This document shows, in pieces, positions 20,183-62,023 of a DNA stretch of 64,000 bases. The position numbers were made by a program, and so were the translations under genes. Numbering within the stretch: position 1 is the first letter of the stretch; each line of letters opens with the position of its first letter. The notes under the pieces were generated by a model. That model saw only the letters and a list, made by a program, of their open reading frames with translations. It did no database searches and was not told the DNA's origin. The DNA is taken from positions 1 through 64,000 of the forward strand of contig CADAGX010000015.1 in the NCBI GenBank assembly GCA_902787575.1, in the 5' to 3' direction. This DNA comes from an uncultured Bacteroidales bacterium. GTDB taxonomy: Bacteria > Bacteroidota > Bacteroidia > Bacteroidales > Bacteroidaceae.

Positions 20183-20299
20183 ACGTGCATCAAGTCACCC
20201 AGATTAGGCTGCAACAGCAAATCCACACGTGGCAATGCTGCATGCGACGTGCGGCAATCTGAAAACCACGTGTGGCGTCAGAGGAAACCACACGTCGCA
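20183..20299 (+). repeat. ACGT-phased array A, between divergent genes
   Basis: ACGT cores at 20183, 20227, 20247, 20268 and 20292: spacings 44 (twice 22), 20, 21 and 24. Contexts include CCACACGTGGCA, GCGACGTGCGGCA, CCACGTGTGGC and CCACACGTCGCA. The last two are inverted and can pair over 8 bp around a 12-nt loop. The array fills the space between the glycogen operon promoter and the next plus-strand promoter. Confidence 0.7.
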
Positions 20300-20348
20300 G
20301 GGAGCAACCTTTTTCGAGTTTTTATGCGGCCGACTCGAAGTAATTCAC

Positions 20349-20356
20349 TACCTTTG
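20349..20356 (+). promoter_or_regulatory. Promoter -7 box TACCTTTG
   Basis: TACCTTTG lies 27 nt before ATG 20383. Confidence 0.75.
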
Positions 20357-20382
20357 CGGAAGAAATACAAAAATTCGAAGCA

Positions 20383-20826
20383 ATGAAGCGAAACATTCTG
20401 CTTTGGTCAGCCCTACTCTGCACCTCGATGCTCAGCGCGCAACAGCCTTGGAAACTCGACCTCACAGCCGTCGACGACAGCCTGACACTACGCATAGACC
20501 TCTACGAAGAGAGCATTCCGGTGCCCAGCATGGAGATGTTCGGACCGATGAACGGATATATGAGTGGTGACATCTATCGCGTCTGGGCTGTGACGTCCTT
20601 CGAAATCATCGACGACCGCACGGCCAAACTCCGCCTCTCGAACGATATGGGAAGCGAGACGCAAGCTGCCACACTCAGCGCACTCAGCGACTCCACATAT
20701 CGTCTCAAGTTTGATGGCTACAACGCAGTACGCCGCGTGGCCAAAGGAAAGAAACTGGTGAAAGCGCCTTCCGAATTCTTAATGCAAAAGCGTGTAAGTC
20801 ATATACGCAACGTAGGCCGTCAATAA
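20383..20826 (+). CDS. Small secreted protein, unknown function
   Basis: A 147-residue protein with a Sec signal (MKRNILLWSALLCTSMLSAQQ). The mature part is rich in short beta-like stretches (LTLRIDLYEESIPVPSMEMF) with no recognised domain. The last 48 nt overlap the 3' end of the antiporter gene on the other strand. It has its own promoter. Confidence 0.7.
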   Translation: MKRNILLWSALLCTSMLSAQQPWKLDLTAVDDSLTLRIDLYEESIPVPSMEMFGPMNGYMSGDIYRVWAVTSFEIIDDRTAKLRLSNDMGSETQAATLSALSDSTYRLKFDGYNAVRRVAKGKKLVKAPSEFLMQKRVSHIRNVGRQ

Positions 20827-21708
20827 CAGCGTTCCCTCGCCGCGCGTAAGACGTCGGCCCGAGAAAGATACAATCCAGAGCAGCACACAACTGCCCACAA
20901 GAACGCTCCAGTCGAGCATATTCACGCCCGTAATCTGCATGGGAGCAATCAGATTGCAGGCCCCCAGCACAAAGACGGCGTTGAAAACATTGCTGCCCAA
21001 CACGTTGCCGAGCGCCAGCCCGTCGCTACCCTTTCGGGCCGCCACGACGCTTGTGGCCAGTTCGGGCAAGCTGGTGCCGGCGGCAAGTATCGTCATCCCG
21101 ATTATCTTCTCGCTGACACCCAGTTCGCGGGCCACATCCGTAGCGCCGTTCACCAAAATCTGACCGCCACCCACCAGGCATCCGATGCCGAGCAGTATCA
21201 AACCGAAAAGCTGCCACAGCGGTTTCTTCTCTTCGACGAGCGTTTCAGCACCTGCAGCCTCACGTTTTCCCAAATATACATTATATATAAGGAATAAGAG
21301 GAAGAGACCGAAGAGCAACGATGCGTCGAGCCGCGAAATCTCGCCGTCAAAGCCCACCAAGACAAGCGCTGCAGTGACGAGAAGGCAGAAAGGCATGTCG
21401 CGATACAACACACCACGCGAGACTGGCAGCGCCAGAATCATGCTCGAGACGCCCACGATAACCAGAATATTGAAGATGTTGCTGCCCAAAATGTTGCCCA
21501 CACTCATGTCGCCGCTGCCGCGAAGACAACTCAGGAAGCTGACGATAAATTCAGGCAGACTCGTCCCGAAGGCCACAACCGTGAGTCCGATTATCAGTTC
21601 GCTCACTCGCCATTTGCGAGCCAAGCCGCTCGCACCGTCCGTAAAGCGGTCGGCGCCCCAAAGAACAAGCGCGATACCCGCTACGATGAAAATTATATCC
21701 AGTATCAT
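20779..21708 (-). CDS. Calcium/sodium antiporter (CaCA family, YrbG-like)
   Basis: A 309-residue inner-membrane exchanger with about 10 TM segments. It has the two inverted alpha-repeats of the CaCA family: GTSLPEF with GNILGSNIFNIL in the first half, and GTSLPELATS with GNVLGSNVFNAVF in the second. The open frame runs upstream to 22242, but the earlier part crosses the promoter of a plus-strand gene; ATG 21708 (MILDIIFIVAGIALVLWGAD) gives the normal family length. The 3' end overlaps the convergent small secreted-protein gene. Confidence 0.92.
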   Translation of the reverse strand: MILDIIFIVAGIALVLWGADRFTDGASGLARKWRVSELIIGLTVVAFGTSLPEFIVSFLSCLRGSGDMSVGNILGSNIFNILVIVGVSSMILALPVSRGVLYRDMPFCLLVTAALVLVGFDGEISRLDASLLFGLFLLFLIYNVYLGKREAAGAETLVEEKKPLWQLFGLILLGIGCLVGGGQILVNGATDVARELGVSEKIIGMTILAAGTSLPELATSVVAARKGSDGLALGNVLGSNVFNAVFVLGACNLIAPMQITGVNMLDWSVLVGSCVLLWIVSFSGRRLTRGEGTLLLTAYVAYMTYTLLH

Positions 21709-21844
21709 AATCGGCCGCAAAATTACACAGAATATTCCGAAAGCCGACCTGCGACACGCACTTTTTTCGCAGTCGTAACACAAATTTAATTTAGCCGCCC
21801 GAAGATTTCTCGGTCGCGAACTGTGGAAAACGGATTTTTGTTCG

Positions 21845-21852
21845 TAACTTTG
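21845..21852 (+). promoter_or_regulatory. Promoter -7 box TAACTTTG
   Basis: TAACTTTG lies 25 nt before ATG 21877 and rules out the upstream ATG at 21823. Confidence 0.7.
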
Positions 21853-21876
21853 CATCACGAAACAGCAAACAAAACT

Positions 21877-22071
21877 ATGGCCTCGAACAACGAAATGGTG
21901 CAATGCCTGTACTGCCGCTGGGCGACATACAAGCAATGGTTCAAGAATCCCGTGGTAGCCTCCTGCTCCATACGTGGCGACAAACAGGTTGCAGCCACAA
22001 AACGAATATGCAAGGAGTACAAAGAGAGAAACAGCGAGCCGGAAATAGAGCATTTCGACAGCTACGATTAA
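21877..22071 (+). CDS. Small Cys-containing protein (CxxC plus two Cys), unknown function
   Basis: A 64-residue protein (MASNNEMVQCLYCRW...) with Cys-x2-Cys near residues 10-13 and two further cysteines (ASCSI, RICKEY), spaced like a small zinc-ribbon-type metal site. The C-terminus is charged. It has its own promoter and a 112-nt gap to the next gene. The family is not recognised; metal binding is inference. Confidence 0.65.
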   Translation: MASNNEMVQCLYCRWATYKQWFKNPVVASCSIRGDKQVAATKRICKEYKERNSEPEIEHFDSYD

Positions 22072-22126
22072 ACTCTTTTTAGGAATGTTTAACAGCGCGG
22101 CGCTTGGGAAATTGAAATATTCGACG

Positions 22127-22134
22127 TACCTTTG
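22127..22134 (+). promoter_or_regulatory. Promoter -7 box TACCTTTG
   Basis: TACCTTTG lies 50 nt before ATG 22184. A TTGGG at about 22104 sits near the -33 position. Confidence 0.75.
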
Positions 22135-22183
22135 CATTACAAAACGCAACCAAACAAACAAGTTTAAACGTAAAATTGAAAAT

Positions 22184-23602
22184 ATGAACATCAAAAGAAT
22201 TACTTTCGCCTTCGCTTTCGCAGCCTTTGCGGGCGGCGTCATGGCTCAAGACTTCAGTGGCTCCAGTCTGGAGGAACGCATTGGATATACCAACAATAAT
22301 AACGAGGACAGCATCAAGCTGGGCCGCGGCTACATCTCCATGTTCCAGCAGACGATGGCCGACAAAAACTGGAAAGACGCGCACATCAACTTCAAGTGGC
22401 TCCTGCAGAATGCGCCATATGCTGTGAACGGAATCTACACCCAAGGCCCGTTCCTGCTCTACAACCTGATACAGAGCGAGACGGACGAGGCAAAACGTCT
22501 GGAATACTTCAACGAACTGATGGCGCTCTTCGACGCACGCCAAAAGAATCTCGACGCGCTGAATTCGTTCGCTAAGACAACTTCGACGCTGGGCGACGTG
22601 CTCTCGGTGAAGGCCGACTATTACAACTGGACGGCACCAAGCGTGAAAGGTTCTGGCTATACGCTCAACAAAACGTATGAGAATTACAGCCAGGCCATCA
22701 AGATGATTAACGAGAAAGGCGGCCGGGAAATAGAAGGCAGCGTGCTGCAGAACTTCTTCCTCGTGAGCGACGCCATGTACAAGAGCGCACCTAACGCACT
22801 GCGCGAGCAATATCTGCAAGACTACCTCGACTCGAAAGACGCATGCGAGAAGATGCTGCAGCTGGCAAAGCAGGCACAGGCAGAAGGAGACTCCACAAAG
22901 GCAAATCAACTGGTGGCAAAGTACGACGGCCCGCTTGCTTTCATCGAATCTACGTTCTCGCAGAGCGGTGCGGCAGACAGCGCTCAGATTGTGAACATCT
23001 ACACGAAGAAATTTGAGAGCTACAAGACAGATATCGCGAAGCTTAACAGCGCGCTGACGCTGATGCAGCAGAACGACTGCGATAACAGCGATATCTATTA
23101 CCAGTACGCCGAGGCAGCTTACGCGATAGAGCCGACATTTACTTCGGCAATCGGTTTGGCGCAGAAGTCGCAGAAAGACGGCAATGCCGACAAAATGCTG
23201 GAGTACTACGAGAAAGCATTGGAACTGAGTTCGAGCGACGCCAATCGTGGTGTCATCTGCCTGAACATCTCCAATGGTCTGACCAAGAGCGAGAGCTACA
23301 CCGGTGCGCTGACATATGCCGAGCGAGCCATCAAGTACAATCCAGACTTGGCCGGCAAGGCATTCCTGAAGCAGGCTAACATCTACGCTCGTCTGGGACA
23401 GTACAACGACGCAGTTGCCTACTGCACCAAGGCTGCCAACGCAGACATTACGGTGAGCGGTACGGCCAATCGTCTGAAAGAAAACATTCAGAAAGCACAG
23501 GCCAACCAGGCCGCAAACGAGCGCGCACGCCGTGCTTACGAAGAGTTCATCGCTCGCCAGAAAGCAGAAGAGGACTTCTGGACGCGTGGTGTAAAGAAGT
23601 AA
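22184..23602 (+). CDS. Secreted tetratricopeptide-repeat protein
   Basis: The start at 22184 gives 472 residues beginning with a Sec signal (MNIKRITFAFAFAAFAGGVMAQ). The upstream ATG at 22085 precedes the promoter and is excluded. The body is helical with TPR-like units, clearest at about residues 310-430 (YYEKALELSS, ALTYAERAIKYNPDLAGKAFLKQANIYARLGQYNDAVAY). It ends in a charged helix with EEFIARQKAEEDFW. Probably a periplasmic scaffold; partners unknown. A strong terminator follows. Confidence 0.8.
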   Translation: MNIKRITFAFAFAAFAGGVMAQDFSGSSLEERIGYTNNNNEDSIKLGRGYISMFQQTMADKNWKDAHINFKWLLQNAPYAVNGIYTQGPFLLYNLIQSETDEAKRLEYFNELMALFDARQKNLDALNSFAKTTSTLGDVLSVKADYYNWTAPSVKGSGYTLNKTYENYSQAIKMINEKGGREIEGSVLQNFFLVSDAMYKSAPNALREQYLQDYLDSKDACEKMLQLAKQAQAEGDSTKANQLVAKYDGPLAFIESTFSQSGAADSAQIVNIYTKKFESYKTDIAKLNSALTLMQQNDCDNSDIYYQYAEAAYAIEPTFTSAIGLAQKSQKDGNADKMLEYYEKALELSSSDANRGVICLNISNGLTKSESYTGALTYAERAIKYNPDLAGKAFLKQANIYARLGQYNDAVAYCTKAANADITVSGTANRLKENIQKAQANQAANERARRAYEEFIARQKAEEDFWTRGVKK

Positions 23603-23640
23603 CTCAGGCTTACACCTTATATAATTAATAAGCCAAGCGC

Positions 23641-23687
23641 ATCCGTCCGCAATTCGGCACGTAGCCGTTATGCGGACGGATTTTTTA
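23641..23687 (+). terminator. Terminator after the TPR gene
   Basis: ATCCGTCCGCA (23641-23651) pairs with TGCGGACGGAT (23671-23681), followed by TTTTTT. The loop holds a smaller CGGC-ACGTA-GCCG hairpin whose ACGT (23659) lies 41 nt, about two array periods, before the first core of array B. Confidence 0.85.
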
Positions 23688-23696
23688 TGCCTTGGA

Positions 23697-23795
23697 GCGA
23701 CGTGTTGCTGTGAAAAATCTACGTGTGGCGTGAGCGAATGCGACGTGTCGCGTGAAAGAATGCGACGTGTCGCTGTAACTAAGACTACACGTGCC
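23697..23795 (+). repeat. ACGT-phased array B
   Basis: ACGT cores at 23700, 23721, 23743, 23765 and 23789 (spacing 21, 22, 22, 24). Contexts are GCGACGTGTTGC, CTACGTGTGGC, TGCGACGTGTCGC twice, and CTACACGTGCC. The first four are in reverse orientation relative to CYACACGTSGCA. The array lies just past the TPR-gene terminator. The remaining gene-free DNA to 24145 is A+T-rich, with the tatA promoter and leader and nothing else I can name. Confidence 0.75.
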
Positions 23796-23974
23796 TACAG
23801 ATGGCGGAATTCGCAGTAAAAACAATCCGAAAAGCAGACTTACAAAGAAGAAAAAGACAATTTTTCTACCACTAAACAGCAAACAAAGAAACACGAAGCG
23901 CAGCAATAGCAAAAATAAATGTTAAAAATGATTAAACAACACGCTAAACTCAATGCCATATCAGTAGAAAATCG

Positions 23975-23982
23975 TAACTTTG
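23975..23982 (+). promoter_or_regulatory. Promoter -7 box TAACTTTG for the tat operon
   Basis: TAACTTTG lies 163 nt before the tatA ATG, leaving an unusually long leader of about 155 nt in which I see no known riboswitch. Confidence 0.6.
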
Positions 23983-24145
23983 AGAGGAAAAGAGCGGATT
24001 TTAGGCCTTAGCAGGAGAAAATGCCACCGTGCGTACTGAAAAATGAGGCCTTTCGCGACGCAAAAAGAACGAGAAACGAGTACGACATCCACCCGACGGA
24101 ACGAAGTGCTCAACCAAAGTAATAACATAATTAAACATCACAAAA

Positions 24146-24367
24146 ATGACAAGTCATCTTTTATTCATTGGAAACCTTGGCACGGGCGAAATGGTCTTCA
24201 TTGCCCTGATTGTCCTGCTGCTCTTCGGAGGAAAGAAAATACCCGAGTTGATGCGCGGTTTGGGCAAAGGCGTGAACAGCTTCAAGCAGGGAATGAACGA
24301 AATCGAGAAAGACATCACAGCTGAGCCCAAGAAGCCCGAAGAAAACTACCAGAAAGAAGAGAAATAA
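24146..24367 (+). CDS. tatA: Sec-independent translocase subunit TatA
   Basis: A 73-residue protein: one TM helix ([14 protein letters not shown]) followed by the TatA hinge and amphipathic helix [16 protein letters not shown] and a charged tail. It would form the translocation pore with TatC. No separate TatB is in the window, fitting a minimal TatA/TatC system. It is first in a five-gene run and directly precedes a Tat-signal oxidoreductase gene. Confidence 0.93.
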
Positions 24368-24400
24368 CCCAATAACAAAACCTTTTTAACACAAAACATT

Positions 24401-25912: not shown

Positions 25913-25958
25913 GCCCGAACGGAACTGAGCTCAATTTTCATTTTAATACACGAGAAAA

Positions 25959-26837: not shown

Positions 26838-26850
26838 ACTCTCATCATTG

Positions 26851-26904
26851 GGGCGGCATCCGATTCAGGTTTCGTGAGTACGGAATGCCGCCCTACTCTT
26901 TTTA
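26851..26904 (+). terminator. Internal terminator between DUF1080 and TIM-barrel genes
   Basis: GGGCGGCAT (26851-26859) pairs with ATGCCGCCC (26885-26893), extended by CCG/CGG with one bulge, then a TACTCTTTTTA tail. It lies inside what is otherwise one gene run. Confidence 0.75.
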
Positions 26905-26936
26905 CACATCAAAACAGACGAAAGAACAGGAAGATT

Positions 26937-27827: not shown

Positions 27828-27848
27828 ACTGACGGCTTGAAACCATTG

Positions 27849-27888: not shown

Positions 27889-27906
27889 CAGAAAACGCAC
27901 ATAGAT

Positions 27907-35163: not shown

Positions 35164-35230
35164 ACGTGTGATAATTTCAAAAGCACGTGCGGCAATAATA
35201 AAACCACGTGCAAAAATTTTAAAATCACAA
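35164..35230 (+). repeat. ACGT-phased array C in the ettA leader
   Basis: ACGT cores at 35164, 35185 and 35206 (spacing 21, 21) and a decayed ACAA at 35227 (again 21). The units align end to end as ATCACGTGTG..., AGCACGTGCGG..., ACCACGTGCAA..., ATCACAAGCAA..., each followed by an A/T-rich filler. The array lies downstream of the promoter, so it is transcribed. Confidence 0.7.
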
Positions 35231-40391: not shown

Positions 40392-42719
40392 TCAGGATAT
40401 CACCTTAAACTTTGCAAATCGCAACAGCAGGGTTTTCTCTCCAGCATTGTCAAAACGGACGGTGGCTTTCGCGTCAAGTCCGGTTCCCTCGAGTTTCACC
40501 ACAGTTCCCAGCCCAAAGCGGTCGTGTGCGATGCGCGCGCCGGCCACAACACCAGCCGGTGCCGCAGGTGCGGACGCGCTGGAAGCCGTTGGCCGCACGC
40601 GGACGAAACGCGAAGGAGGCGTGCTTTCGGCTTCTCGGTCGCGCAGGAATCCGGATGTTTGCGGCGAAGGCGAGAGTTGCCTGCCGCGGGAAGAAAAATG
40701 CGACGTGTAGTTTTCCACATTGCGACGTGTGGTACCAAAATTTCCTGCAGGCAGTTTTTCCGAAGCCGCGGCAGCATTTTCTACGCGCAGGAAGCGGCTG
40801 TCTATTTCTCGCAGGAAGCGGCTGGGATTCGCAAACTCGAAACTGCCGTTTCTCATACGAGAGCGAGCATACGTCAGGAGCAGGAATTTGCGTGCGCGCG
40901 TCATGGCCACATAAAAGAGGCGGCGCTCCTCCTCCACCCCGCGCGGACTATCCATCGACATCTCGCTTGGGAAAAGATTTTCCTCGAGTCCCACCACGAA
41001 AACGACGTCAAACTCCAGTCCTTTGGCAGAGTGCGCTGTCATCAGCGACACTTTGTCGTCCGTCTCTGTCTCGTCCTCATCTTTATCTGAAAGCAAGCTG
41101 ACCGACTGCAGATAGGTGGTAAGCAGGCAGGCGGCGCCTTGCTCGGTCTGTTGCTCCACGAAAGAACTGATTCCGTTCAGCAACTCCTGCAGGTTTTCTT
41201 GCTTCGTCTTATCTTCCGGCTCGTTCCCTTTGAAAATTTCGTCGCGCAGTCCCGAATCCACCACGATTTGCATGCCCAGCGTATAAGCGTCGGCCGTGAA
41301 AGACAGCTCGTGGAAAGTCTCCATCATGCGGCGGAAGCTTTCGAGTTTGGCCTGCGTGCCCTTGTTTACGTCGAGCAGTTCGGGCGAAGACAGCACGTCC
41401 CAGACGGGAATCTGCTGCGAGGACGCCACGTGCAGCACCTTGTCGAGTGTGGTGCGGCCTATCCCACGTGTATGTTTATCTATCACACGCTTCAGGGCTT
41501 CCTCGTCATTGAGGTTTACGGCCAGTCGGAAAAAAGCTATGGCGCCCTTTACCTCGGCCCGCTGGTAGAAGGATTTTCCGCCGTACACGCGATACGGCAG
41601 CGAGCACGCGCTGAATGTTTCCTCCAGAATGCGGCTTTGGTCGTTTGTCCTGTAAAGAACGGCCATCTGACAAAAGGGAATTCCGCGGCGAGCGAACTCA
41701 CGCACGCGCCGGGCCACGAGATTCGCCTCGTCTTCTGCACTATACGCGCGGCACACAGCTATCGGCTCGCCTACGTCGTTCTGACTGAAGACTTCCTTCC
41801 TTATCTGTCGTTCGTTATGATGTATGAGACTATTGGCGGCAGCCACAATATTCTTGGTGGAGCGGTAGTTTTGCTCCAACTTGAAGAGTCGCGCACCGTT
41901 GTACGCCTGTTGGAAATTCAGTATGTTGTCTATTTCTGCTCCGCGGAAGCTGTAGATGCTCTGCGCATCATCGCCCACAACGCAGACTCTCTGGTGCAGT
42001 TTCGTCAGTTCCCACACGATGCGATGCTGCGCGTAATTGGTGTCTTGATACTCATCCACGAGCACAAACTGGAATCTCTCTTGGTACTTTTCGAGAATCT
42101 CAGGGTGTTGCTGAAACAAAAGCCACGTGTTAAGCAGCAAATCGTCGAAGTCCATTACGTTTGATACACGACAACGGCGCACATACTCGGCGTAAATCTG
42201 TGGAATCAGTGGCATGTTGCTTTCGCGATCGCGGCGAGCACGCGCATCGTTGGCGTATGCTTCCGGCAACATCAAAACGTTCTTTGCCGAACTAATGCGC
42301 GCAACAACCGTGCCAAGTCGGTATTGTTTGTCGTCCAGCTGCATTTCGCGGATGATAGCCTTCAGCAGATTTTTGCTGTCGTCGGCGTCATAAATGGTAA
42401 AGTCGGACGTGAAATTCAGAAATTGAGACTCGATACGAAGAATCCTAGCAAAGATACTGTGGAAAGTGCCCATCCAAAGTTTCTCGGCAAGCGGCGCACC
42501 GACAAGCTGACCCACGCGCTCCTGCATTTCACGTGCAGCCTTGTTGGTAAACGTGAGTGCGAGTATGTTCCACGGCGCGTAGCCGTGTTCGAGAAGATAC
42601 GCCACCTTATAGGTCAGCACACGTGTTTTTCCACTTCCGGCGCCAGCTATCACCAGCGACGGGGCTTCTATACATTTTACGGCCTCCTGTTGGGCGGGAT
42701 TTAAGTCAGAGAGATTCAC
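40392..42719 (-). CDS. UvrD/PcrA-type ATP-dependent DNA helicase
   Basis: A 775-residue SF1A helicase with Walker A GAGSGKT (27-33), TFTNKAAREM, DEYQDTN, QNYRST, and MTAHSAKGLEFDVVFVVGLEE. The C-terminus (IAHDRFGLGTVVKLEGTGL...) is the Tudor-like domain of PcrA/UvrD that binds RNA polymerase. It acts in nucleotide excision repair and in removing stalled complexes. The linker before the Tudor-like domain carries a duplicated SRFLRE/SRFLRV and two units of the ACGT-phased array (about residues 663-675). Last gene of a minus-strand run from 48312. Confidence 0.94.
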   Translation of the reverse strand: MNLSDLNPAQQEAVKCIEAPSLVIAGAGSGKTRVLTYKVAYLLEHGYAPWNILALTFTNKAAREMQERVGQLVGAPLAEKLWMGTFHSIFARILRIESQFLNFTSDFTIYDADDSKNLLKAIIREMQLDDKQYRLGTVVARISSAKNVLMLPEAYANDARARRDRESNMPLIPQIYAEYVRRCRVSNVMDFDDLLLNTWLLFQQHPEILEKYQERFQFVLVDEYQDTNYAQHRIVWELTKLHQRVCVVGDDAQSIYSFRGAEIDNILNFQQAYNGARLFKLEQNYRSTKNIVAAANSLIHHNERQIRKEVFSQNDVGEPIAVCRAYSAEDEANLVARRVREFARRGIPFCQMAVLYRTNDQSRILEETFSACSLPYRVYGGKSFYQRAEVKGAIAFFRLAVNLNDEEALKRVIDKHTRGIGRTTLDKVLHVASSQQIPVWDVLSSPELLDVNKGTQAKLESFRRMMETFHELSFTADAYTLGMQIVVDSGLRDEIFKGNEPEDKTKQENLQELLNGISSFVEQQTEQGAACLLTTYLQSVSLLSDKDEDETETDDKVSLMTAHSAKGLEFDVVFVVGLEENLFPSEMSMDSPRGVEEERRLFYVAMTRARKFLLLTYARSRMRNGSFEFANPSRFLREIDSRFLRVENAAAASEKLPAGNFGTTRRNVENYTSHFSSRGRQLSPSPQTSGFLRDREAESTPPSRFVRVRPTASSASAPAAPAGVVAGARIAHDRFGLGTVVKLEGTGLDAKATVRFDNAGEKTLLLRFAKFKVIS
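40701..40732 (-). repeat. Two ACGT-phased units inside the helicase linker
   Basis: ACGT cores at 40703 and 40725, spacing 22, in the contexts TGCGACGTGTAG and TGCGACGTGTGG. On the coding strand they are CCACACGTCGCA and CTACACGTCGCA, read in two different frames (T-R-R-N and Y-T-S-H). Confidence 0.65.
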
Positions 42720-48312: not shown

Positions 48313-48386
48313 GGCTTTCGGTTTGCGTTAATATTTATTTCTCGGGTCGCGAATGAGACGACGACCTGCACTATTTTAAAAACTAC

Positions 48387-48475
48387 ACGTGGCGTGGAGA
48401 AAAACTACACGTAGATTTTTGAAAACTACACGTCGCAATCGCCCAAACTACACGTGGCTTTCGGAACGCCGCGTC
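48387..48475 (-). repeat. ACGT-phased array D, between batE and the PAP2 gene
   Basis: ACGT cores at 48387, 48409, 48430 and 48452 (spacing 22, 21, 22), plus a possible GCGT at 48471 (19). On the plus strand four units are CTACACGTGGC, CTACACGTAG, CTACACGTCGCA and CTACACGTGGC, all in one orientation. On the minus strand each is followed by a TTT-TTTTT run. The array begins 12-20 nt past the batE stop. Confidence 0.75.
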
Positions 48476-49235: not shown

Positions 49236-49238
49236 AGT

Positions 49239-54967: not shown

Positions 54968-54982
54968 TTCCGATTTTTGTTT

Positions 54983-55852: not shown

Positions 55853-55855
55853 TTA

Positions 55856-56851
55856 TCAGGGAACCTCCACCTTGTTTATTACCTTGCTTACTATCTCCTC
55901 GCTCGTTACGTTGTTTGCTTCTGCCTCGTACGTCAGGCCAATTCTGTGACGCAGCACGTCGTGTGCAACGGCACGCACGTCCTCTGGAATCACGTAACCT
56001 CTGTGCTTGATGAATGCGAAGGCTCGCGCTGCCAGTGCCAAGTTGATGCTGGCGCGGGGCGACCCGCCGAATTCCACGAAATCGGCTATCTCTTTTAGTC
56101 CGTACTTCTCTGGGAATCGAGTGCAGAACACGATGTCTGCAATGTATTGCTCTATCTTTTCGTCGATATAGACCTGTCGAACTACCTCGCGCGCCTGTCG
56201 GATGTCATCGGTTGTCAGCACAGGGCGAACGTTTTCCTGCTCGCCGGAAATATTCTGGCGAATGATAAGCTTCTCTTCGTCGAGTTTCGGGTAATCTATC
56301 ACCACCTTGAGCATAAAACGGTCCACTTGGGCTTCAGGCAGCGGATACGTGCCTTCCTGCTCGATGGGGTTCTGCGTAGCCAAAACGAGGAATGGTTTCG
56401 GCAACGCGTAAGTTGTCTTGCCGATTGTCACCTGTCGTTCCTGCATAGCCTCCAGCAGTGCGCTCTGCACCTTAGCCGGCGCACGGTTTATCTCGTCGGC
56501 CAGCACGAAGTTGGCAAAGACGGGACCCTGCTCCACCACGAATTTTTCGTCCTTCTGGCTGTAAATCATCGTGCCGATAACGTCGGCGGGCAACAAGTCG
56601 GGTGTAAACTGGATACGGCTGAACTTGGCGTCCACAAGTTGGGCCAATGTTTTTATGGCTTTTGTCTTTGCCAGTCCCGGCACGCCCTCAAGTAATACAT
56701 GTCCGTCGCTCAGCAGGCCAATTAGCAGGGATTCCACCAGATGTTTCTGCCCAACGATAACTTGATTCATGCCTGTCACAAGATTTGTAACAAAGCCACT
56801 TTGGCGCTCGATGCGCTCGTTTAGTTCGCGAATGTCAATTGATTCTGCCAT
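55856..56851 (-). CDS. MoxR family AAA+ ATPase
   Basis: A 331-residue AAA+ ATPase with Walker A GVPGLAKT, Walker B LADEINRAP, sensor ATQNP and EGTYPLPEAQVDRFM, as in the MoxR family. It probably acts as a chaperone that remodels the VWA/DUF58 proteins downstream. First gene of the Bat operon, with a promoter 43 nt upstream. Confidence 0.94.
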   Translation of the reverse strand: MAESIDIRELNERIERQSGFVTNLVTGMNQVIVGQKHLVESLLIGLLSDGHVLLEGVPGLAKTKAIKTLAQLVDAKFSRIQFTPDLLPADVIGTMIYSQKDEKFVVEQGPVFANFVLADEINRAPAKVQSALLEAMQERQVTIGKTTYALPKPFLVLATQNPIEQEGTYPLPEAQVDRFMLKVVIDYPKLDEEKLIIRQNISGEQENVRPVLTTDDIRQAREVVRQVYIDEKIEQYIADIVFCTRFPEKYGLKEIADFVEFGGSPRASINLALAARAFAFIKHRGYVIPEDVRAVAHDVLRHRIGLTYEAEANNVTSEEIVSKVINKVEVP

Positions 56852-56893
56852 TGTGATATAATGTTTTTGTATTTCTGTCGTTCAAATTACACG

Positions 56894-56901
56894 CAAATTT
56901 A
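56894..56901 (-). promoter_or_regulatory. Possible promoter for the Bat operon (TAAATTTG)
   Basis: CAAATTTA on the plus strand is TAAATTTG on the minus, 43 nt before the moxR start. Confidence 0.55.
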
Positions 56902-56985
56902 CTGCTTTTTTGCCACATACGACCTCCCCTATTGTTCTAAATAAAGTTATCGGAGTGTTAAATAAAGTAAAACAGCCGATGCGCC

Positions 56986-57080
56986 GCGTGTCGCAGCCAA
57001 AATACCACACGTCGCAAGCGCGAAAACTACACGTCGCAAAAACAAAAACTACGTGTGGCATTCGTCATTACCACACGTAG
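56986..57080 (+). repeat. ACGT-phased array E in the 312-nt gap between moxR and the HU/LysM gene
   Basis: Cores GCGT 56986, then ACGT at 57009, 57031, 57051 and 57075 (spacing 23, 22, 20, 24). Contexts are CGCGTGTCGCA, CCACACGTCGCA, CTACACGTCGCA, CTACGTGTGGCA and CCACACGTAG. The last two are inverted and form the terminator listed next. Apart from the array and the Bat promoter I see nothing else in this gap. Confidence 0.75.
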
Positions 57081-57085
57081 TTTTT
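57041..57085 (-). terminator. Bidirectional terminator formed by two inverted array units
   Basis: CTACGTGTGG (57049-57058) and CCACACGTAG (57071-57080) are perfect inverted repeats around a 12-nt loop. The plus side continues TTTTTC and the minus side TTTTTGTTTTTG. On the minus strand it lies about 80 nt past the stop of the HU/LysM gene. Confidence 0.75.
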
Positions 57086-57163
57086 CTATCGTCTAAGCAC
57101 ACAAAAATCTATGCCTCGCGCAATGCTTCAAGAAACAGAAGCATCCGTCTGAATTTCTGCGCG

Positions 57164-58243
57164 CTACTTATTCTCTTTTAGCTCGGGAATCTTCACCTCA
57201 GCACCCACGGAAATCACGTCGGGATTGGGGAATTGATTGAATACGATAATGTACTGCGCAAAATCCTTATGGCCGTATTCCTTAACGGCGAGTTTCAGAA
57301 TGCTATCGCCCACACGCATAATGTGAACGCGTCGCGTGCCAACTATCAGATACTTGCCGCCAGGAACCTGCGGATAAAGGTCGGTTGGCGATGGTTTTGG
57401 CTTCGGTTTTGCAGCAGCCTTCTGTTGTTGTGCGGCTGAAACGTTCGCCTTTTTTCGAACTACCCGCGTCTGCTCGGTTTTAGGCCGCTGAATGTTCAGT
57501 GACAAGATGCGAGAGTAACCAAGATAATAGCTCAGTCCCATCAGAAGAAGCGTCACCAACGCATAAAGCAAAGCGAACCAAGGAGAAATTCCCTTGTGAA
57601 CGACCTGCACTGCAGGCGTAGCAGTTGCAGAAACGGCAGCAGGCACAGTCGCTACAGCGTGCACCTCGGTAGCAGTTTCTGTCTGAGGCTCAACATTTTC
57701 AGCTGCAGTGTCGGCGGCGACTGGTTTCACCTCTTCCGTCGTGGCTTCCGATTGTATATCTTCTTCGTCGTGTTCTTCAGCCTGCTCCACATCGTCCGTT
57801 ACTATCGACACATCATCTACGCTGATATCTAAGTCATCCTCGTCGTCCGTTTCCTCAGGAAAATCAGCCACAGGTAGCGGCGTGACGGGTTCGGTGCGTT
57901 CCATTTCATCCAGCGGCGTGTTCTCATTCAGAATTACCGTTTGAAAATCTGCAAACGGCTTGTTCACCTGATCGCGCAACGAGGTGTCGGGTGCAAAACT
58001 AACCTTCGAATGTCCGGGAATGACAATCCTCTCGCCCGTATTCACGTTCACACTTTCGCGCGATGCCACTTCGATTAATTTAAAAGTACCCAGTCCTTTT
58101 ATTTTCAGCACCTTGTCATCCACCACGCACTGCGTCACGCATTCGAAGAAATTGCGCACGAAAGTGTCAGCTTCGCGGCGCGAAAAATTTTTTCTGGAGG
58201 CCAGTGCATCGGCCAGGTCCTGAAGAGAAATTTTCTTTTCCAT
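57164..58243 (-). CDS. HU-like DNA-binding domain joined through a TM helix to a LysM domain
   Basis: A 359-residue protein in four parts: an HU/IHF-like domain (1-95; VLKIKGLGTFKLIEVASRES, TGERIVIPGHSKVSFAP), a long acidic low-complexity linker (100-215), one TM helix (about 222-243) and a C-terminal LysM-like domain (298-353; HIMRVGDSILKLAVKEYG, VISVGAEVKIPEL). It could tether DNA to the cell wall. Charges do not follow the positive-inside rule (acidic before, basic after the TM), so topology is uncertain. Related HU-TM-SPOR proteins are known in Bacteroidetes. Follows the HU gene by 4 nt. Confidence 0.85.
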   Translation of the reverse strand: MEKKISLQDLADALASRKNFSRREADTFVRNFFECVTQCVVDDKVLKIKGLGTFKLIEVASRESVNVNTGERIVIPGHSKVSFAPDTSLRDQVNKPFADFQTVILNENTPLDEMERTEPVTPLPVADFPEETDDEDDLDISVDDVSIVTDDVEQAEEHDEEDIQSEATTEEVKPVAADTAAENVEPQTETATEVHAVATVPAAVSATATPAVQVVHKGISPWFALLYALVTLLLMGLSYYLGYSRILSLNIQRPKTEQTRVVRKKANVSAAQQQKAAAKPKPKPSPTDLYPQVPGGKYLIVGTRRVHIMRVGDSILKLAVKEYGHKDFAQYIIVFNQFPNPDVISVGAEVKIPELKENK

Positions 58244-58247
58244 AGCC

Positions 58248-58526
58248 TTATTTACTTTTTGCCTTGTCCTTAAGCGCGTTGTTGGGTTTGAAATTCACCA
58301 CAATCTTGGGCGGCACCAGCATTCTCTGCTTTGTGGCAGGATTAACCAGTACGCGTTCCAGTTTCTTCTTCACCTCGAAAGCGCCGAAACCGGCGATGGA
58401 AACGGTGTTTTCGTCCTCCAACTGTGACGAAACCTCAGCCACCAGCGCATTTGTCAGCTCTGCCGTAAGCCGAGTGGATGTGCCGTTTTTCTCAGACAGA
58501 AAGGCGATAAATTCCTTGTTATTCAT
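58248..58526 (-). CDS. HU family DNA-binding protein
   Basis: A 92-residue single-domain HU protein: MNNKEFIAFLSEKNGTSTR, VSIAGFGAFEVKKKLERVLVNPATKQRMLVPPKIVVNFKPNNALK, with the expected proline-tipped DNA-binding arm (NPATKQ). It binds and bends DNA. It lies 33 nt behind rimO and 4 nt before the HU/LysM gene, so the two HU proteins are coexpressed. Confidence 0.92.
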   Translation of the reverse strand: MNNKEFIAFLSEKNGTSTRLTAELTNALVAEVSSQLEDENTVSIAGFGAFEVKKKLERVLVNPATKQRMLVPPKIVVNFKPNNALKDKAKSK

Positions 58527-58559
58527 AGTCTTAATTGAATTATCGTGTATTTAACTCCA

Positions 58560-59858
58560 TCAGACGCAATGTCCGTAGAGATCGAAGTCGTCGGCGCTGT
58601 CGACTCTTACTTCGGAAAAATGTCCAACGGCCGCATCTTTAGCATCTGCAAGCCTCACCAACACCTCGGGGTCCACTTCGGGCGAGTCGTACTGCGTGCG
58701 GCCCACCAGATAGTCACCCTCGGCACGGTCGAAGATGACACGCAGCGTCTCTCCTACCTTGGCTTCTTGTACTTCAGAACTGATTTGCTGCTGCAGGCGC
58801 ATCAGGCGGCTGAGCCGATTCTGCTTGACATCCTGCGGCACGTCGTCCGTGTACTTGTCAAAACTATACGTGCCTTCCTCAGGGCTATACGCAAAAGCGC
58901 CCATTCTCTCAAATCGCGCCCAACGCACAAAGTCGAGCAACTCGGCAAAGTCTGCGTCACTTTCACCCGGGAAGCCCACCATAAACGTGGTGCGTAGGTG
59001 AATGCCTGGCACTTCTGAACGCAGTTTTTCCACCAGTGCACGCGTCTCGGCCGATGTGGTGTGACGATGCATGGCCTTCAGCTGCGAATCCGAAATATGC
59101 TGCAGGGCAATGTCGAGATACTTGCAGACGTTTTCGCGTTCACGCATTACGGACAGCAACTCCATCGGGAAGTCCGTAGGATAAGCATAGTGCAACCTTA
59201 TCCAATCCACGCCCGGCACATCGGATATCCGCTGCACAAGTTCGGCTATCGCACGTCGGCCATATAGGTCCAGACCGTAGTAAGTGAGTTCCTGAGCTAT
59301 GACATTGAACTCGCGCACACCCTGTTTCACCAGCCACTGCACTTCCGCAACAATTTCCTCGGCAGGTCGGCTCTTATGTTTTCCCGTGATGATTGGAATG
59401 GCGCAATACGCACATTTTCGATTGCAACCTTCAGAAATCTTCAAATACGCATGGTGGGAAGGTGTGGTGAGACAGCGCTCCATTCGAAATGCGGGCTGAT
59501 AAATCTTTCCAAGGTCGGCGAGAAGATTGTTGAAATCAAACTTGCCATAAAATTTATCAACTTCGGGAATCTCGGTTCTCAGCTCAAAGAAATAGCGTTG
59601 CGACAGGCAGCCCATCACATAAAGATGTTTCAGCTGTCCGGATTCCTTGCGCTGCGCCATCTCCAATATCATCTGGATGCTTTCTTCCTTCGCGTCGCCG
59701 ATGAAACCGCACGTGTTCACCACGGCAATTTCACCTGTCGGTTCCTCATCATGATGCACGTCGAAACCCGAAAGCTGCAATTGACGCATCAGATGCTCGC
59801 TGTCCACAAGATTCTTGCTACAGCCCATCGTGATAATATCGACGCGTGGTTTTCTCAT
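58560..59858 (-). CDS. rimO: Ribosomal protein S12 methylthiotransferase RimO
   Basis: A 432-residue radical-SAM enzyme with three parts: an N-terminal UPF0004 domain (MGCSKNLVDSEHLMRQL, VVNTCGFI), the radical-SAM core with CNRKCAYC, and a C-terminal TRAM domain. It adds a methylthio group to Asp in S12. The lack of tRNA-specific features and the presence of SKNLVDSE fit RimO rather than MiaB. Its start overlaps the ftsY stop by 4 nt. Confidence 0.94.
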   Translation of the reverse strand: MRKPRVDIITMGCSKNLVDSEHLMRQLQLSGFDVHHDEEPTGEIAVVNTCGFIGDAKEESIQMILEMAQRKESGQLKHLYVMGCLSQRYFFELRTEIPEVDKFYGKFDFNNLLADLGKIYQPAFRMERCLTTPSHHAYLKISEGCNRKCAYCAIPIITGKHKSRPAEEIVAEVQWLVKQGVREFNVIAQELTYYGLDLYGRRAIAELVQRISDVPGVDWIRLHYAYPTDFPMELLSVMRERENVCKYLDIALQHISDSQLKAMHRHTTSAETRALVEKLRSEVPGIHLRTTFMVGFPGESDADFAELLDFVRWARFERMGAFAYSPEEGTYSFDKYTDDVPQDVKQNRLSRLMRLQQQISSEVQEAKVGETLRVIFDRAEGDYLVGRTQYDSPEVDPEVLVRLADAKDAAVGHFSEVRVDSADDFDLYGHCV

Positions 59859-60817
59859 TCTTTCGAATCTTTTCCGAAAAGCGAATCCACAAATTCCTGA
59901 CGGTTGAAAGGCTGCAAATCGTCCATTCCTTCGCCGATTCCTATGTATCGCACGGGAATTTTAAACTGGTCACTGATACCAATTACAACGCCGCCCTTCG
60001 CAGTTCCGTCCAACTTCGTCACAGCCATGCTGCTGACTGCCGTTGCTGCAGTAAACTGCTTTGCCTGCTCAAAAGCATTCTGTCCCGTTGTAGCATCGAG
60101 GACAAGCATCACATCATGCGGCGCGTCGGGCACAATTTTCTGCATCACGCGTTTGATTTTCGACAGTTCGTCCATCAAGCCCTTCTTGTTATGCAGTCGC
60201 CCCGCCGTGTCAATGATTACAACGTCGGCGCCATTGGCCTTCGCACTGCTCAACGTATCGAAAGCCACGCTCGCCGCATCGCTTCCTGTCTGCTGATGTA
60301 TCACTGGAACGCCGATACGTTCGCCCCAAATGACAAGTTGTTCTACAGCTGCTGCACGAAACGTGTCGGCTGCGCCAAGAAAGACTTTCAGTCCGTTCTT
60401 CTTAAATTGGTATGCCAGCTTTCCGATTGTAGTAGTCTTGCCGACGCCATTAACGCCCACCACCATGATTACGTAAGGCCGCGCGTCGGAAATCACATAA
60501 CCATCCGTGTCCGAACTATTATTCTCTGTGAGCAAAAGAGCGATTTCATCGCGCAATAGTTCGTTCAACTCCGAAGTCGTTACATACTTGTCGCGGGCGA
60601 CGCGAGCCTGCACGCGGTCAATTATGCGTAGCGTTGTGTCCACTCCGACGTCGCTCGTCACAAGAATTTCCTCGAGGTCGTCAAGAACTTCGTCGTCTAT
60701 CTTAGTCTTTCCTGCTACGGCCCGCGAAATTTTTTCCAGGAAACTCCGCTTCGTTTTATCGAGACCCTGATCCAGCGCCTCCTTCTTTTCTTTTGTAAAG
60801 AAATTAAATAATCCCAT
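59855..60817 (-). CDS. ftsY: Signal recognition particle receptor FtsY
   Basis: A 320-residue SRP GTPase with the N domain followed by the G domain: GVNGVGKTTTIGKLAYQF (P-loop), DTFRAAAVEQL, DTAGRLHNKKGLMDEL, TKLDGTAKGG and the closing GIGEGMDDLQPF. There is no long acidic N-terminal A domain, as usual in this phylum. It targets membrane proteins to the translocon. First gene of ftsY-rimO-HU-HU/LysM. Confidence 0.96.
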   Translation of the reverse strand: MGLFNFFTKEKKEALDQGLDKTKRSFLEKISRAVAGKTKIDDEVLDDLEEILVTSDVGVDTTLRIIDRVQARVARDKYVTTSELNELLRDEIALLLTENNSSDTDGYVISDARPYVIMVVGVNGVGKTTTIGKLAYQFKKNGLKVFLGAADTFRAAAVEQLVIWGERIGVPVIHQQTGSDAASVAFDTLSSAKANGADVVIIDTAGRLHNKKGLMDELSKIKRVMQKIVPDAPHDVMLVLDATTGQNAFEQAKQFTAATAVSSMAVTKLDGTAKGGVVIGISDQFKIPVRYIGIGEGMDDLQPFNRQEFVDSLFGKDSKE

Positions 60818-60838
60818 AAACTACATCCGTTTTCGCCG

Positions 60839-60846
60839 CAAAGTTA
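60839..60846 (-). promoter_or_regulatory. Minus-strand promoter -7 box for ftsY
   Basis: CAAAGTTA on the plus strand is TAACTTTG on the minus, 22 nt before the ftsY start. Confidence 0.75.
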
Positions 60847-60975
60847 GGCAAAAATATCGAATTCATCGCAGAAAATCAGAAAATAAAATGAGAACATAGA
60901 GATACCACCCGCAGCGTCTGCGCTAAAGGGTTTAATGATAAGAATAATTACATCCCACAATAATTTTTCCTCGAA

Positions 60976-61076
60976 AAAACCTACATCCTACACGTTCCGC
61001 AGGTTAGTTAGCTGGACTATAAACTGTTATTACTGTGTAGGCAAGCGTGTAGGATACGCTAAAACGTGTAGGTTTT
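60976..61076 (-). terminator. Large compound hairpin between DUF4295 and ftsY genes
   Basis: AAAACCTACA (60976-60985) pairs with TGTAGGTTTT (61067-61076), and TCCTACACG (60986-60994) with CGTGTAGGA (61046-61054), leaving a 12-nt bulge and a 51-nt apical region. On the minus strand the structure ends in a TTTTTT run, so it can terminate the rpmB-rpmG-DUF4295 transcript. Extra GTGTAGG copies (61035) could form alternative pairings. Confidence 0.6.
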
Positions 61077-61096
61077 GACGTTAAAGAGGCGATTAT

Positions 61097-61282
61097 TCAC
61101 AAAATAAATAGAAAAAATAAAAGCCGCAACCAGAAGAAATCCTTCACAGCTTCGTTGGGAACCATTTGCTCGTCAAAACTATAAGCTCCCGTCTGCGGAT
61201 TCTTCACCATCTTAATCACTTTTGTATACGAACGGCCGTCAGTTTTGCCTGTCTGCAACGTGGCCACAGTTTTCTTTGCCAT
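61097..61282 (-). CDS. DUF4295 family small protein with unusual hydrophobic C-terminus
   Basis: A 61-residue protein starting MAKKTVATLQTGKTDGRSYTKVIKMVKNPQTGAY, the DUF4295 pattern found beside L33 and L28 in Bacteroidetes; it may be a small ribosome-associated protein. The family as I know it ends soon after VPNEAVKDFF with a short basic tail. Here it runs on as WLRLLFFLFIL, so it is about 8-10 residues longer and hydrophobic at the end. No simple one-base frameshift restores an early stop. Confidence 0.8.
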   Translation of the reverse strand: MAKKTVATLQTGKTDGRSYTKVIKMVKNPQTGAYSFDEQMVPNEAVKDFFWLRLLFFLFIL

Positions 61283-61294
61283 ACAATAATAATT

Positions 61295-61483
61295 TTACTT
61301 GATTTCCTTGTGAACGGTCATGCGCTTCAGAATCGGATTGTACTTCTTCAGTTCCAAACGTTCCGGCGTGTTCTTTCTATTTTTCGTAGTGATATAACGA
61401 GACGTGCCGGGCAGTCCGCTCTGCTTCATCTCGGTGCATTCCAGAATTACCTGCACTCTGTTACCTTTAACTTTCTTTGCCAT
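61295..61483 (-). CDS. rpmG: 50S ribosomal protein L33
   Basis: A 62-residue protein ([46 protein letters not shown]), the L33 pattern. Only the single Cys at ECTE remains, so the four-Cys zinc site is absent (the C-minus form). It lies 12 nt before DUF4295 and 15 nt after rpmB. Confidence 0.95.
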
Positions 61484-61498
61484 AATCGTCGAACGTCT

Positions 61499-61759
61499 TT
61501 AACCGATTATTTTTATGTCCTTCCAATCACAATAACCCTGCGCTACGGCATTTTTCAACGCAGCGTCGAGTCCAACTTTATTGATGTAACGCAAACCGGA
61601 AGCGCTTATCTTAAGGCTAATCCAGCAGTCCTCCTCGACGTAATAGAACTTCTTTTCGAACAGATTCACGTCGAATTTTCTTTTTGTACGCCGGCGGGAA
61701 TGCGAAACATTATTGCCAATCATGGCCTTTTTCCCTGTAATCTGACAAATCTTAGACAT
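61499..61759 (-). CDS. rpmB: 50S ribosomal protein L28
   Basis: From ATG 61759 the 86-residue protein starts [29 protein letters not shown], the L28 N-terminus. The upstream Met at 61807 falls at the promoter and is excluded. First gene of the rpmB-rpmG-DUF4295 operon. Confidence 0.95.
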
Positions 61760-61806
61760 TTCTTTTTTCTTTTGTCTACTCCAACAAACTTTTTCCAAAC
61801 AGCGCA

Positions 61807-61814
61807 CAAAGGTA
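61807..61814 (-). promoter_or_regulatory. Minus-strand promoter -7 box for rpmB
   Basis: CAAAGGTA on the plus strand (TACCTTTG on the minus), 48 nt before the rpmB start. Confidence 0.8.
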
Positions 61815-61928
61815 CGCCTTTTCTACGTAATGCGCAAATCTTTTAATGTTTTTTTTCTGCAACACGCTGATTTTGCAGCAGAGAGAGGTCTGAAATAGGC
61901 TGCCGCGAGCAAGAAATACAGATTCGAC

Positions 61929-62023
61929 ACGTCGTTTTTTTATTTTTGCACGCAGTTTTCAGAATATGACGTGTGCCACAACATGACGACACACGTCGCA
62001 ATCACAAGCGCCACATCATGTGG
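61929..62023 (+). repeat. ACGT-phased array F, between tsaD and rpmB
   Basis: Cores ACGT 61929, ACGC 61950, ACGT 61969 and ACGT 61993 (spacing 21, 19, 24), then a palindromic CCACAT-C-ATGTGG centred near 62017 (about 23 further). GACGTGT (61968-61974) and ACACGTC (61991-61997) are inverted and can pair. The array starts a few nt after the tsaD stop (minus strand). Confidence 0.65.

What the first reader, a model, noticed from the sequence alone, without database searches (positions are those of the whole stretch)
20183..62023. A dispersed family of ACGT-phased arrays with about 21-22 nt period
Seven intergenic or leader clusters (near 20.2, 23.7, 28.7, 35.2, 48.4, 57.0 and 62.0 kb) and two coding ones (13.4, 40.7 kb) consist of the motif CYACACGTSGCA or its reverse complement, with cores mostly 20-24 nt apart and A/T-rich filler between. 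The period is about two helical turns, so every core faces the same side of the helix. Unit orientation is mixed. The filler differs between units while the core and period persist, which argues for selection or for a repeat-spreading process rather than simple tandem slippage. It is too short in period for CRISPR. The 22-23-nt tandem repeats of Porphyromonas BrickBuilt elements are the nearest thing I can recall; I cannot show homology. Function could be phased binding of an abundant DNA-binding protein, transcription termination, or a selfish array.
Basis: seen in the sequence. Interest (0 to 1): 0.8.

Follow-up and report, generated by a model that had tools for sequence, protein, structure and literature searches.

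The report
Precisely 22-bp-phased palindrome arrays in Bacteroidales
Between the genes of an uncultured bacterium and of many of its relatives lie short arrays, each of usually three to five near-palindromic DNA units placed 22 base pairs apart; the core of the unit stays the same while the rest differs from species to species, which may point to an unknown protein that binds the chromosome in regular steps.

Summary
The unit is a palindromic hexamer core, ACRYGT, with variable arms. The centre-to-centre step is 22 bp (127 of 143 steps; the other 16 are 21). In 614 kb of the genome there are 42 arrays of three or more units (about 180 per genome); 40 shuffles average 0.07. Arrays are mostly intergenic, keep away from start codons, and peak at four units. 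Related species carry arrays with the same core and step but other arms; four genomes of other families in the order have a few. Between close species arms change faster than core or flanks; the core is not significantly slower than flanks once a misaligned flank is removed. A BrickBuilt-like MITE and RAYT-borne REPs do not fit. A hairpin role is unsupported in this genome, but arms co-vary in two relatives. Best explanation (0.45): clustered operator-like sites for a dimeric DNA-binding protein filling successive 22-bp footprints at transcription-unit boundaries. The binder is unidentified. The 28.7 kb cluster is not an array; 35.2 kb is degenerate; 62.0 and 40.7 kb have two units.

The parts
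13403..13471 (.). Array, 3 units (middle core GCACGT is 5 of 6), steps 22 and 21; probable leader of the gene called at 13521
20215..20305 (.). Array, 4 units (one core 5 of 6), steps 22, 21, 22; upstream of a glycogen synthase gene (18421-20106, minus)
23690..23802 (.). Array, 5 units, steps 21, 22, 22, 22; about 95 bp after the stop of a TPR gene (22184-23602)
35164..35211 (.). Degenerate array, 3 weak cores at a 21-bp step, between divergent dnaB (minus) and an ABC ATPase gene (plus)
40693..40740 (.). Two units, step 22, inside the UvrD/PcrA-type helicase gene 40392-42719 (minus), in the linker before the tudor domain
48375..48465 (.). Array, 4 units, steps 22, 21, 22; between two minus-strand genes (PAP2 and TPR/SH3)
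56984..57088 (.). Array, 4 full units at step 22 plus one degenerate unit at 56984; between moxR-type (55856-56851, minus) and HU-domain (57164-58243, minus) genes
61959..62006 (.). Two units, step 22, just beyond the 3' end of the tsaD gene (62027-63055, minus)

Best explanation
Each array is a cluster of, most often, three to five dyad-symmetric binding sites for one dimeric DNA-binding protein. A dimer sits on the ACRYGT core, covers about 22 bp, and touches the next dimer across the junction, so that a short cooperative nucleoprotein stretch of about 66-110 bp forms at transcription-unit boundaries, away from promoters. It would act as a chromosome-organising or insulating element (roadblock, supercoil or loop anchor), not as a regulator of one pathway. 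Shown: core, step, preferred copy number, mostly intergenic placement away from start codons, core steadier than arms, one exact one-unit gain or loss, spread over the genus. Inferred: the protein, dimerisation, cooperativity and the cellular role.
For: Exact step in the own genome (127 of 143 steps are 22, 16 are 21) and in other species (of 25 loci, one per species, 22 show a chain of three or more units; all their steps are 22 except one of 23). Between orthologous arrays the AC..GT positions changed in 2 of 148 against 24 of 222 for arm positions 1-3 (p 0.0003; without the G042/G074 pair 2 of 124 against 21 of 186, p 0.0014). The centre is AC 71, GT 51, GC 38 but AT 2 of 162, where independence predicts 24, so the two halves are read together. 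Array length peaks at four: 7, 6, 21, 9, 5, 1 arrays of 2, 3, 4, 5, 6, 8 units; 12, 6, 21, 5, 1, 1 when only perfect cores count. 36 of 39 classifiable arrays are intergenic; 4 of 35 distances to a start codon are under 100 bp where random placement in the same gaps gives 13.0 (0 of 3000 trials as low). Exactly 22 bp gained or lost in one ortholog pair. ACRYGT outside arrays is near the expected frequency (ratio 0.94), so it is the clustering that is special.
Against: No binder was found: MatP 0 of 14 genomes; RHH_1 1 of 22, and that one (G012) has no R2 match. The core is not significantly slower than the flanks after correction (p 0.06 without a misaligned flank, 0.12 without that pair). 24 of the 35 genus genomes searched show no match with R2, so the element is dispensable. 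Arms of a unit are complementary beyond chance in G005 and G121, which a core-reading protein does not need and which fits hairpins or template switching. Array position is not significantly shared between G000 and three other species, although it is between the close pair G005/G121 (11 shared ends). R/Y centres changed in 3 of 74 positions. Cores were defined on one species of each pair.
Confidence: 0.45

Rival explanations
1. REP/BIME-like selfish palindromes spread by a RAYT or other HUH transposase acting on single-stranded hairpins.
For: Dispersed, mostly intergenic, palindromic, species-specific, mixed orientation, as described for BIMEs (PMC2817692, passages). Part of the G000 half-units carry GTAG. 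Arms co-vary in G005 and G121. A RAYT-like ORF exists in G000. PF01797 is somewhat commoner in array-carrying genomes: 8 of 13 against 3 of 11 (Fisher p 0.12).
Against: Array-carrying G005, G121, G068, G052 and G090 have no PF01797 match (drafts of 80-89% completeness), and G126, G083 and G059, without model matches, do. None of 8 RAYT-type matches in 7 loci has an array within 400 bp; one array lies about 1.7 kb away in G081, and single ACRYGT cores occur near some. G000 arms are not complementary beyond chance. A fixed 22-bp tiling is not a REP feature in the passages seen.
Confidence: 0.18
2. RNA or single-stranded DNA hairpins: bidirectional terminators or mRNA 3'-end stabilisers.
For: Arrays fold better than shuffles as RNA (mean z -3.4 over 92 strands, flanks -0.5). 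In G000 29 of 37 distances to a stop codon are under 100 bp, random placement 25.3, p 0.04. 10 of 36 classifiable arrays are convergent. A T run follows on one strand or the other in 24 of 46 arrays, against 33% for random intergenic 18-mers. Arms co-vary in G005 and G121.
Against: In G000 arm complementarity is at or below chance (position 1: 0.26 against 0.35 expected). 9 of 36 classifiable arrays are between divergent genes. Closeness to stops is weaker in G121 (5 of 14), G005 (12 of 24) and G051 (3 of 12). An exact 22-bp step over 3-6 units is not needed for a terminator. No Rfam family matches in the window.
Confidence: 0.19
3. Neutral minisatellite kept uniform by slippage, template switching or gene conversion between arrays.
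For: One-unit gain or loss. Neighbouring units share arms (a partly motif-selected set), and two units of one array changed alike in L317/L339 and in L324/L343. Core against flanks is not significant after correction.
Against: Core steadier than arms; length peak at four, not geometric (chi-square p about 9e-9; the peak remains with perfect cores only); the same core and step across many species with diverged arms; scarcity of AT centres; avoidance of start codons is also what neutral insertion would show.
Confidence: 0.16

Closest known systems
REP / BIME (repetitive extragenic palindromes, bacterial interspersed mosaic elements)
   Same: Dispersed, mostly extragenic, palindromic, high copy, species-specific, regularly spaced units; BIMEs bind gyrase and IHF (PMC2817692, passages).
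   Different: No RAYT gene flanked by arrays in 8 cases examined, no general tag, contiguous 22-bp tiling instead of REPs separated by spacers, steady core with fast arms, also found between divergent genes.
BrickBuilt MITE of Porphyromonas gingivalis
   Same: Short-period tandem unit in intergenic sites; genome share of similar order (BrickBuilt 0.44%; here 185 units of 22 bp in 614 kb, about 0.7%).
   Different: BrickBuilt units are 23-nt direct repeats, up to 22.8 copies, with leader, tail and IS5-like terminal inverted repeats (PMC4596501, section 5 and part 1 of section 7 read); here no common flanks and palindromic units.
ParR-parC type centromere arrays and MetJ met-box arrays (works like)
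   Same: Clustered short sites filled by dimers that contact each other; R1 ParR needs at least two 11-bp repeats (PMC9426499, passages). MetJ is recalled, not looked up.
   Different: Those are one or a few operators; here an estimated 180 arrays over a chromosome. RHH_1 was found in 1 of 22 genomes; no ParR or MetJ search was run.
matS sites of MatP
   Same: matS, GTGACRNYGTCAC (recalled), resembles the GACR..YGTC look of several species' units.
   Different: matS is single and terminus-specific (recalled); MatP found in 0 of 14 genomes.

Membership tests
REP/BIME | Extragenic, dispersed, more than 100 copies | tested here: met
   42 arrays (185 units) in 614 kb; 36 of 39 classifiable arrays intergenic
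REP/BIME | Palindrome able to form a stem, kept by complementary changes | tested here: inconclusive
   no excess in G000; excess in G005 and G121
REP/BIME | Cognate RAYT gene flanked by the repeats | tested here: not met
   0 of 8 RAYT-type matches with an array within 400 bp; several array-carrying genomes without PF01797
REP/BIME | GTAG or CGTC tag at one end | tested here: inconclusive
   GTAG in part of the G000 half-units, not general in other species by eye; CGTC not tested separately
BrickBuilt MITE | 23-nt direct repeat | tested here: not met
   22-bp palindromic unit, mixed orientation
BrickBuilt MITE | Leader and tail with terminal inverted repeats | tested here: not met
   80 flanks of 150 bp from 40 arrays: 9 similar pairs against 2 in shuffled flanks; the three strongest are ends of a gene family
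CRISPR array | Repeats longer than about 20 nt alternating with unique spacers, cas genes (recalled) | tested here: not met
   step 22 bp in all with a 6-bp core; cas genes not searched
Intrinsic terminator | Stem followed by a T run | tested here: inconclusive
   T run on one strand or the other in 24 of 46 arrays against 33% at random intergenic sites; folding better than shuffles; no arm covariation in G000
Phased operator array of a dimeric protein | Dyad-symmetric conserved core at constant step | tested here: met
   core steadier than arms, though not significantly steadier than flanks
Phased operator array of a dimeric protein | A protein that binds it | not testable with these tools
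   needs pull-down or ChIP; MatP absent, RHH_1 in 1 of 22
MatP/matS | MatP encoded in the genome | tested here: not met
   0 of 14 genomes; E. coli control positive

The most novel reading that the evidence does not exclude
A previously undescribed bacterial chromatin element: about 180 cooperative, 22-bp-stepped nucleoprotein arrays marking transcription-unit boundaries, bound by an unknown protein whose preferred arm sequence changes from species to species while the ACRYGT core and the step stay fixed, so that site and binder co-evolve.
Probability: 0.23. Interest if true: 0.88.

Novelty: new variant of a known kind. Interest (0 to 1): 0.74.

Why it matters
If a protein binds these arrays, a group of uncultured gut-type bacteria organises its chromosome with regular, countable nucleoprotein blocks that can be located by sequence alone, and fast arms around a fixed core would allow a direct test of how a DNA-binding protein and hundreds of its sites evolve together. 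If they turn out to be selfish, they are a palindrome family that seems to spread without the transposase known for REPs. No description was seen in the listings of eight searches of the open-licence library (of these 29, 64, 65 and 77 were aimed at it), which does not hold most subscription papers.

Tried and rejected
Rejected: chance. A 20-24 period as such (one search shows it comes from the off-centre reference motif). MITE with common ends (the three strongest flank matches are the coding ends of a gene family; ARAGORN finds no tRNA at those places). RAYT mobilisation as a requirement. Avoidance of ACRYGT outside arrays (ratio 0.94). MatP, RHH_1. Known RNA family (none in the window).

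Led nowhere: my first array finder counted the free positions of the motif and returned noise; corrected. Orthology of three G005 arrays with three ACATGT-type arrays of G051 could not be established because the intergenic stretches do not align. Position sharing between G000 and G005, G121 or G051 was not significant (p 0.73, 0.22, 0.17); between the close pair G005 and G121 it was (11 shared ends, p 2.6e-7), and between G005 and G051 weakly (3, p 0.02). In the 30 loci around moxR (L162-L191) ACRYGT chains were found in four: the window's own, L171 and L174 in the moxR leader, and L168 elsewhere.

Without it flanks are 82 of 1678, core against flanks p 0.06, arms against flanks p 0.0009; without that pair p 0.12 and 0.002. 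The odds of the best explanation went from 0.5 to 0.45 for this reason, and the neutral rival up. The T-run count was first made per strand without a control; with one it leans towards terminators, so that membership row is now inconclusive.

Rows dropped or limits before counts: two flanks more than 25% diverged were left out; arrays with two or more ACATGT cores were set apart, 6 of 19 G121 arrays were aligned with a G005 counterpart, 2 more near a stretch end were added, and 11 had no counterpart on both sides in the fetched stretches. The finder asks two-unit arrays for two perfect cores while longer chains may hold 5-of-6 cores; one search repeats the length count with perfect cores only. 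The control with other steps is stricter than for 22. Loci were chosen by motif, so frequencies rest on the 614 kb (window, chosen by round coordinates); the window itself was chosen for the finding. The G005 and G121 stretches were chosen because they hold arrays and give no density. Matches used strict filters.
Full report
What was checked. The window is the first 64 kb of contig 15 of a 2.65 Mb draft genome in 34 contigs, completeness 86.9%. By DnaB its nearest named relatives are uncultured Bacteroidaceae, Prevotellaceae or Bacteroidales genomes, several from ruminants; species and genus are not named by the tools.

The unit. Classifying the sequence on each side of ACGT showed that the distance between neighbours depends on orientation: 20 for AB-BA (15 of 16), 22 for AB-AB and BA-BA (22 of 27), 24 for BA-AB (9 of 9). 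This places the true centre 1 bp from the centre of ACGT. With the palindromic core ACRYGT the step is 22: in 614 kb of the own genome (window) there are 107 core pairs at 22, 11 at 21, 1 at 23, 0 at 20 and 1 at 24 against a background of 0.38 per distance; pairs at 44 and 66 number 67 and 33. Chains of three or more units number 42, that is 68 per Mb or about 180 per genome; their steps are 127 of 22 and 16 of 21. Forty Markov shuffles give a mean of 0.07 and a maximum of 1; the reversed sequence gives none. Without the window, 37 arrays remain in 550 kb. The unit splits into two 11-bp half-units, in G000 roughly YGT[CGA]G[CT][ATG]T, in G005 and G121 roughly YGT-NNN-GTTTG.

The window. Arrays lie at 13413, 20225, 23700, 48385 and 57007; two-unit pairs at 40703 and 61969; a degenerate 21-bp run at 35164; nothing at 28.7 kb. 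The pair at 40.7 kb is inside a UvrD-type helicase gene, between the helicase and tudor domains. The proteins scanned show no common theme (10 and 8 proteins, 17 of them from the window).

Grammar. Of 162 full cores the centre is AC 71, GT 51, GC 38 and AT 2; independence would give about 24 AT. Array lengths of 2, 3, 4, 5, 6 and 8 units occur 7, 6, 21, 9, 5 and 1 times, which a geometric law does not fit; with perfect cores only they are 12, 6, 21, 5, 1 and 1. G005, G121 and G051 also have few two-unit arrays (2, 0 and 1), with the commonest length three.

Context. In the 614 kb, 17 arrays lie between tandem, 9 between divergent and 10 between convergent genes, 3 overlap a called gene and 3 are at an edge. 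Four of 35 distances to a start codon are under 100 bp (median 169), where random placement in the same gaps gives 13.0 (0 of 3000 trials as low); 29 of 37 to a stop codon are (median 55), against 25.3 (p 0.04). In tandem gaps 13 of 17 lie nearer the upstream stop (p 0.049). In G121, G005 and G051 start codons are again avoided (1 of 20, 1 of 20 and 0 of 6 under 100 bp), but stop codons are less close (5 of 14, 12 of 24, 3 of 12) and the tandem test is not significant (6 of 10, 10 of 14, 4 of 6). Gene calls are from a simple codon-usage script trained on G000, so starts are approximate.

Hairpin test. Arrays fold better than dinucleotide shuffles as RNA (mean z -3.41 over 92 strands; flanks -0.52). 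But in G000 the arms of a unit are not complementary beyond chance: position 1 is 0.26 against 0.35 expected, position 7 is 0.18 against 0.27; shuffling within arrays removes most of the deficit and shows no excess. In G005 and G121 complementarity is above chance over the genome, and in G005 also within arrays (p 0.0017 and 0.0023 at positions 2 and 3); G051 shows it at position 1 over the genome only. A T run follows on one strand or the other in 24 of 46 arrays, against 33% at random intergenic sites. The hairpin reading is therefore unsupported by covariation here and open in relatives. Neighbouring units share arms (on a partly motif-selected set).

Spread. A sequence-only model of three units (R1) matched 26 of 81 genomes of the genus. 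Loci from 25 other species were returned; 22 show a chain of three or more ACRYGT cores, with all steps 22 except one of 23, and with differing arms, such as GCTACGTGTAGC, CGCGACRYGTCGCG, AAGGACACGTCCTT, AACCACGTGTCGTT; 3 of the 25 show none by this rule. The broader model R2 with laxer filters matched 5 of 5 chosen genomes at E 0.05, with 21 to 101 rows each, both strands counted, and 11 of 35 others, six of them negative. So presence is patchy, and 26 of 81 is a lower bound. R2 matched 5 of 295 genomes of the order, the own one included; the four others are in four other families, with units such as AAAACCACACGTGGTTTT at 22 bp, but 349 kb of stretches from them held no further array. In the phylum 1 of 198 matched, the own genome. 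Both used strict filters.

Evolution. G121 and G005 are close. One array differs by exactly 22 bp while the flanks are nearly identical. In two arrays two neighbouring units changed arms in the same way. Over nine ortholog pairs AC..GT changed in 2 of 148 positions, the R/Y centre in 3 of 74, arm positions 1-3 in 24 of 222, positions 4-8 in 31 of 364, flanks in 104 of 1767. One of those flanks (22 of 89) is misaligned; without it flanks are 82 of 1678. Core against arms is p 0.0003 (0.0014 without the G042/G074 pair). Arms against flanks is p 0.008, and 0.0009 after the correction. Core against flanks is p 0.014 as computed, but 0.06 after the correction and 0.12 without that pair. So fast arms are shown, and a constrained core is a trend that the comparison across species supports. 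Cores were defined on one species of each pair, which can bias the core downward.

Known systems. RAYT-type transposases do not clearly track arrays: at E 1e-3, 8 of 13 array-carrying genomes and 3 of 11 without R1 or R2 matches have PF01797 (p 0.12), and array-carrying G005, G121, G068, G052 and G090 have none. None of 8 RAYT-type matches examined has an array within 400 bp; one array lies about 1.7 kb away in G081. BrickBuilt was compared from the paper (abstract, section 5 and part 1 of section 7 of PMC4596501); its leader and tail have no counterpart here. REP and BIME features are from PMC3733652 and PMC2817692 (passages). RepRanger (PMC12306157, two passages) lists three Bacteroidota in the passage seen; the words Prevotella and Porphyromonas do not occur in its main text. 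MatP is absent from 14 of 14 genomes, and RHH_1 was found in 1 of 22.

Mechanism. A constant step, a core steadier than its arms and shared by many species, a preferred number of units, avoidance of start codons, and near-normal frequency of the core elsewhere (0.94 of expected) are what clustered sites for a cooperative dimer would show. The 22-bp step is close to the footprint of a typical dimer (general knowledge) and does not keep all cores on one face exactly. The role at transcription-unit boundaries (insulation, roadblock, supercoil or loop anchor) is inference. The dispensability across the genus, the arm covariation in two species, and the unproven constraint of core against flanks are the main facts against it.

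Noticed in passing
own genome, 614 kb of stretches outside arrays (window, L049-L058, L192-L211): GATC is at 0.15 and CTAG at 0.09 of the frequency expected from trinucleotides, as if GATC were avoided because of restriction.
   Followed up: partly
L219:6030, 12637, 16769; L220:15680; L171:2654; L231:3042; L316:13331; L318:2504; L141:1132: A second kind of 22-bp palindrome array with core ACATGT (units like TTGCACATACATGTATGTGCAA, mostly three); in G051 several copies are nearly identical and end in GTTTGAACAT / ATGTTCAAAC, like a small mobile repeat.
   Followed up: partly
window 40703-40730: A two-unit array lies inside the linker of a UvrD/PcrA-type helicase gene; REPs inside replication and repair genes are also mentioned in the abstract of PMC3733652 (passage).
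   Followed up: partly
L202:10860-10941, L205:6711-6785, L207:4569-4650; also L055, L201, L049: A gene family whose proteins end in a shared ...PKEVYDNPxxPEDxW-like tail; three of the 40 arrays compared lie close behind such a gene.
   Followed up: partly
window 109-200: A 35-bp tandem repeat, 2.7 copies, with no visible relation to the ACRYGT arrays.
   Followed up: no
L381:2869-3471 (minus), G000 contig 1: A Y1 (RAYT-like) transposase frame of 201 aa, the only PF01797 match in the own genome, without arrays in the 6 kb fetched around it.
   Followed up: yes
L142 and L143: Orthologous arrays of G042 and G074: the right flank has no substitution in 63 aligned bases, while the centres of three units differ (ACGTGT against ACGCGT) and the left flank does not align.
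   Followed up: partly
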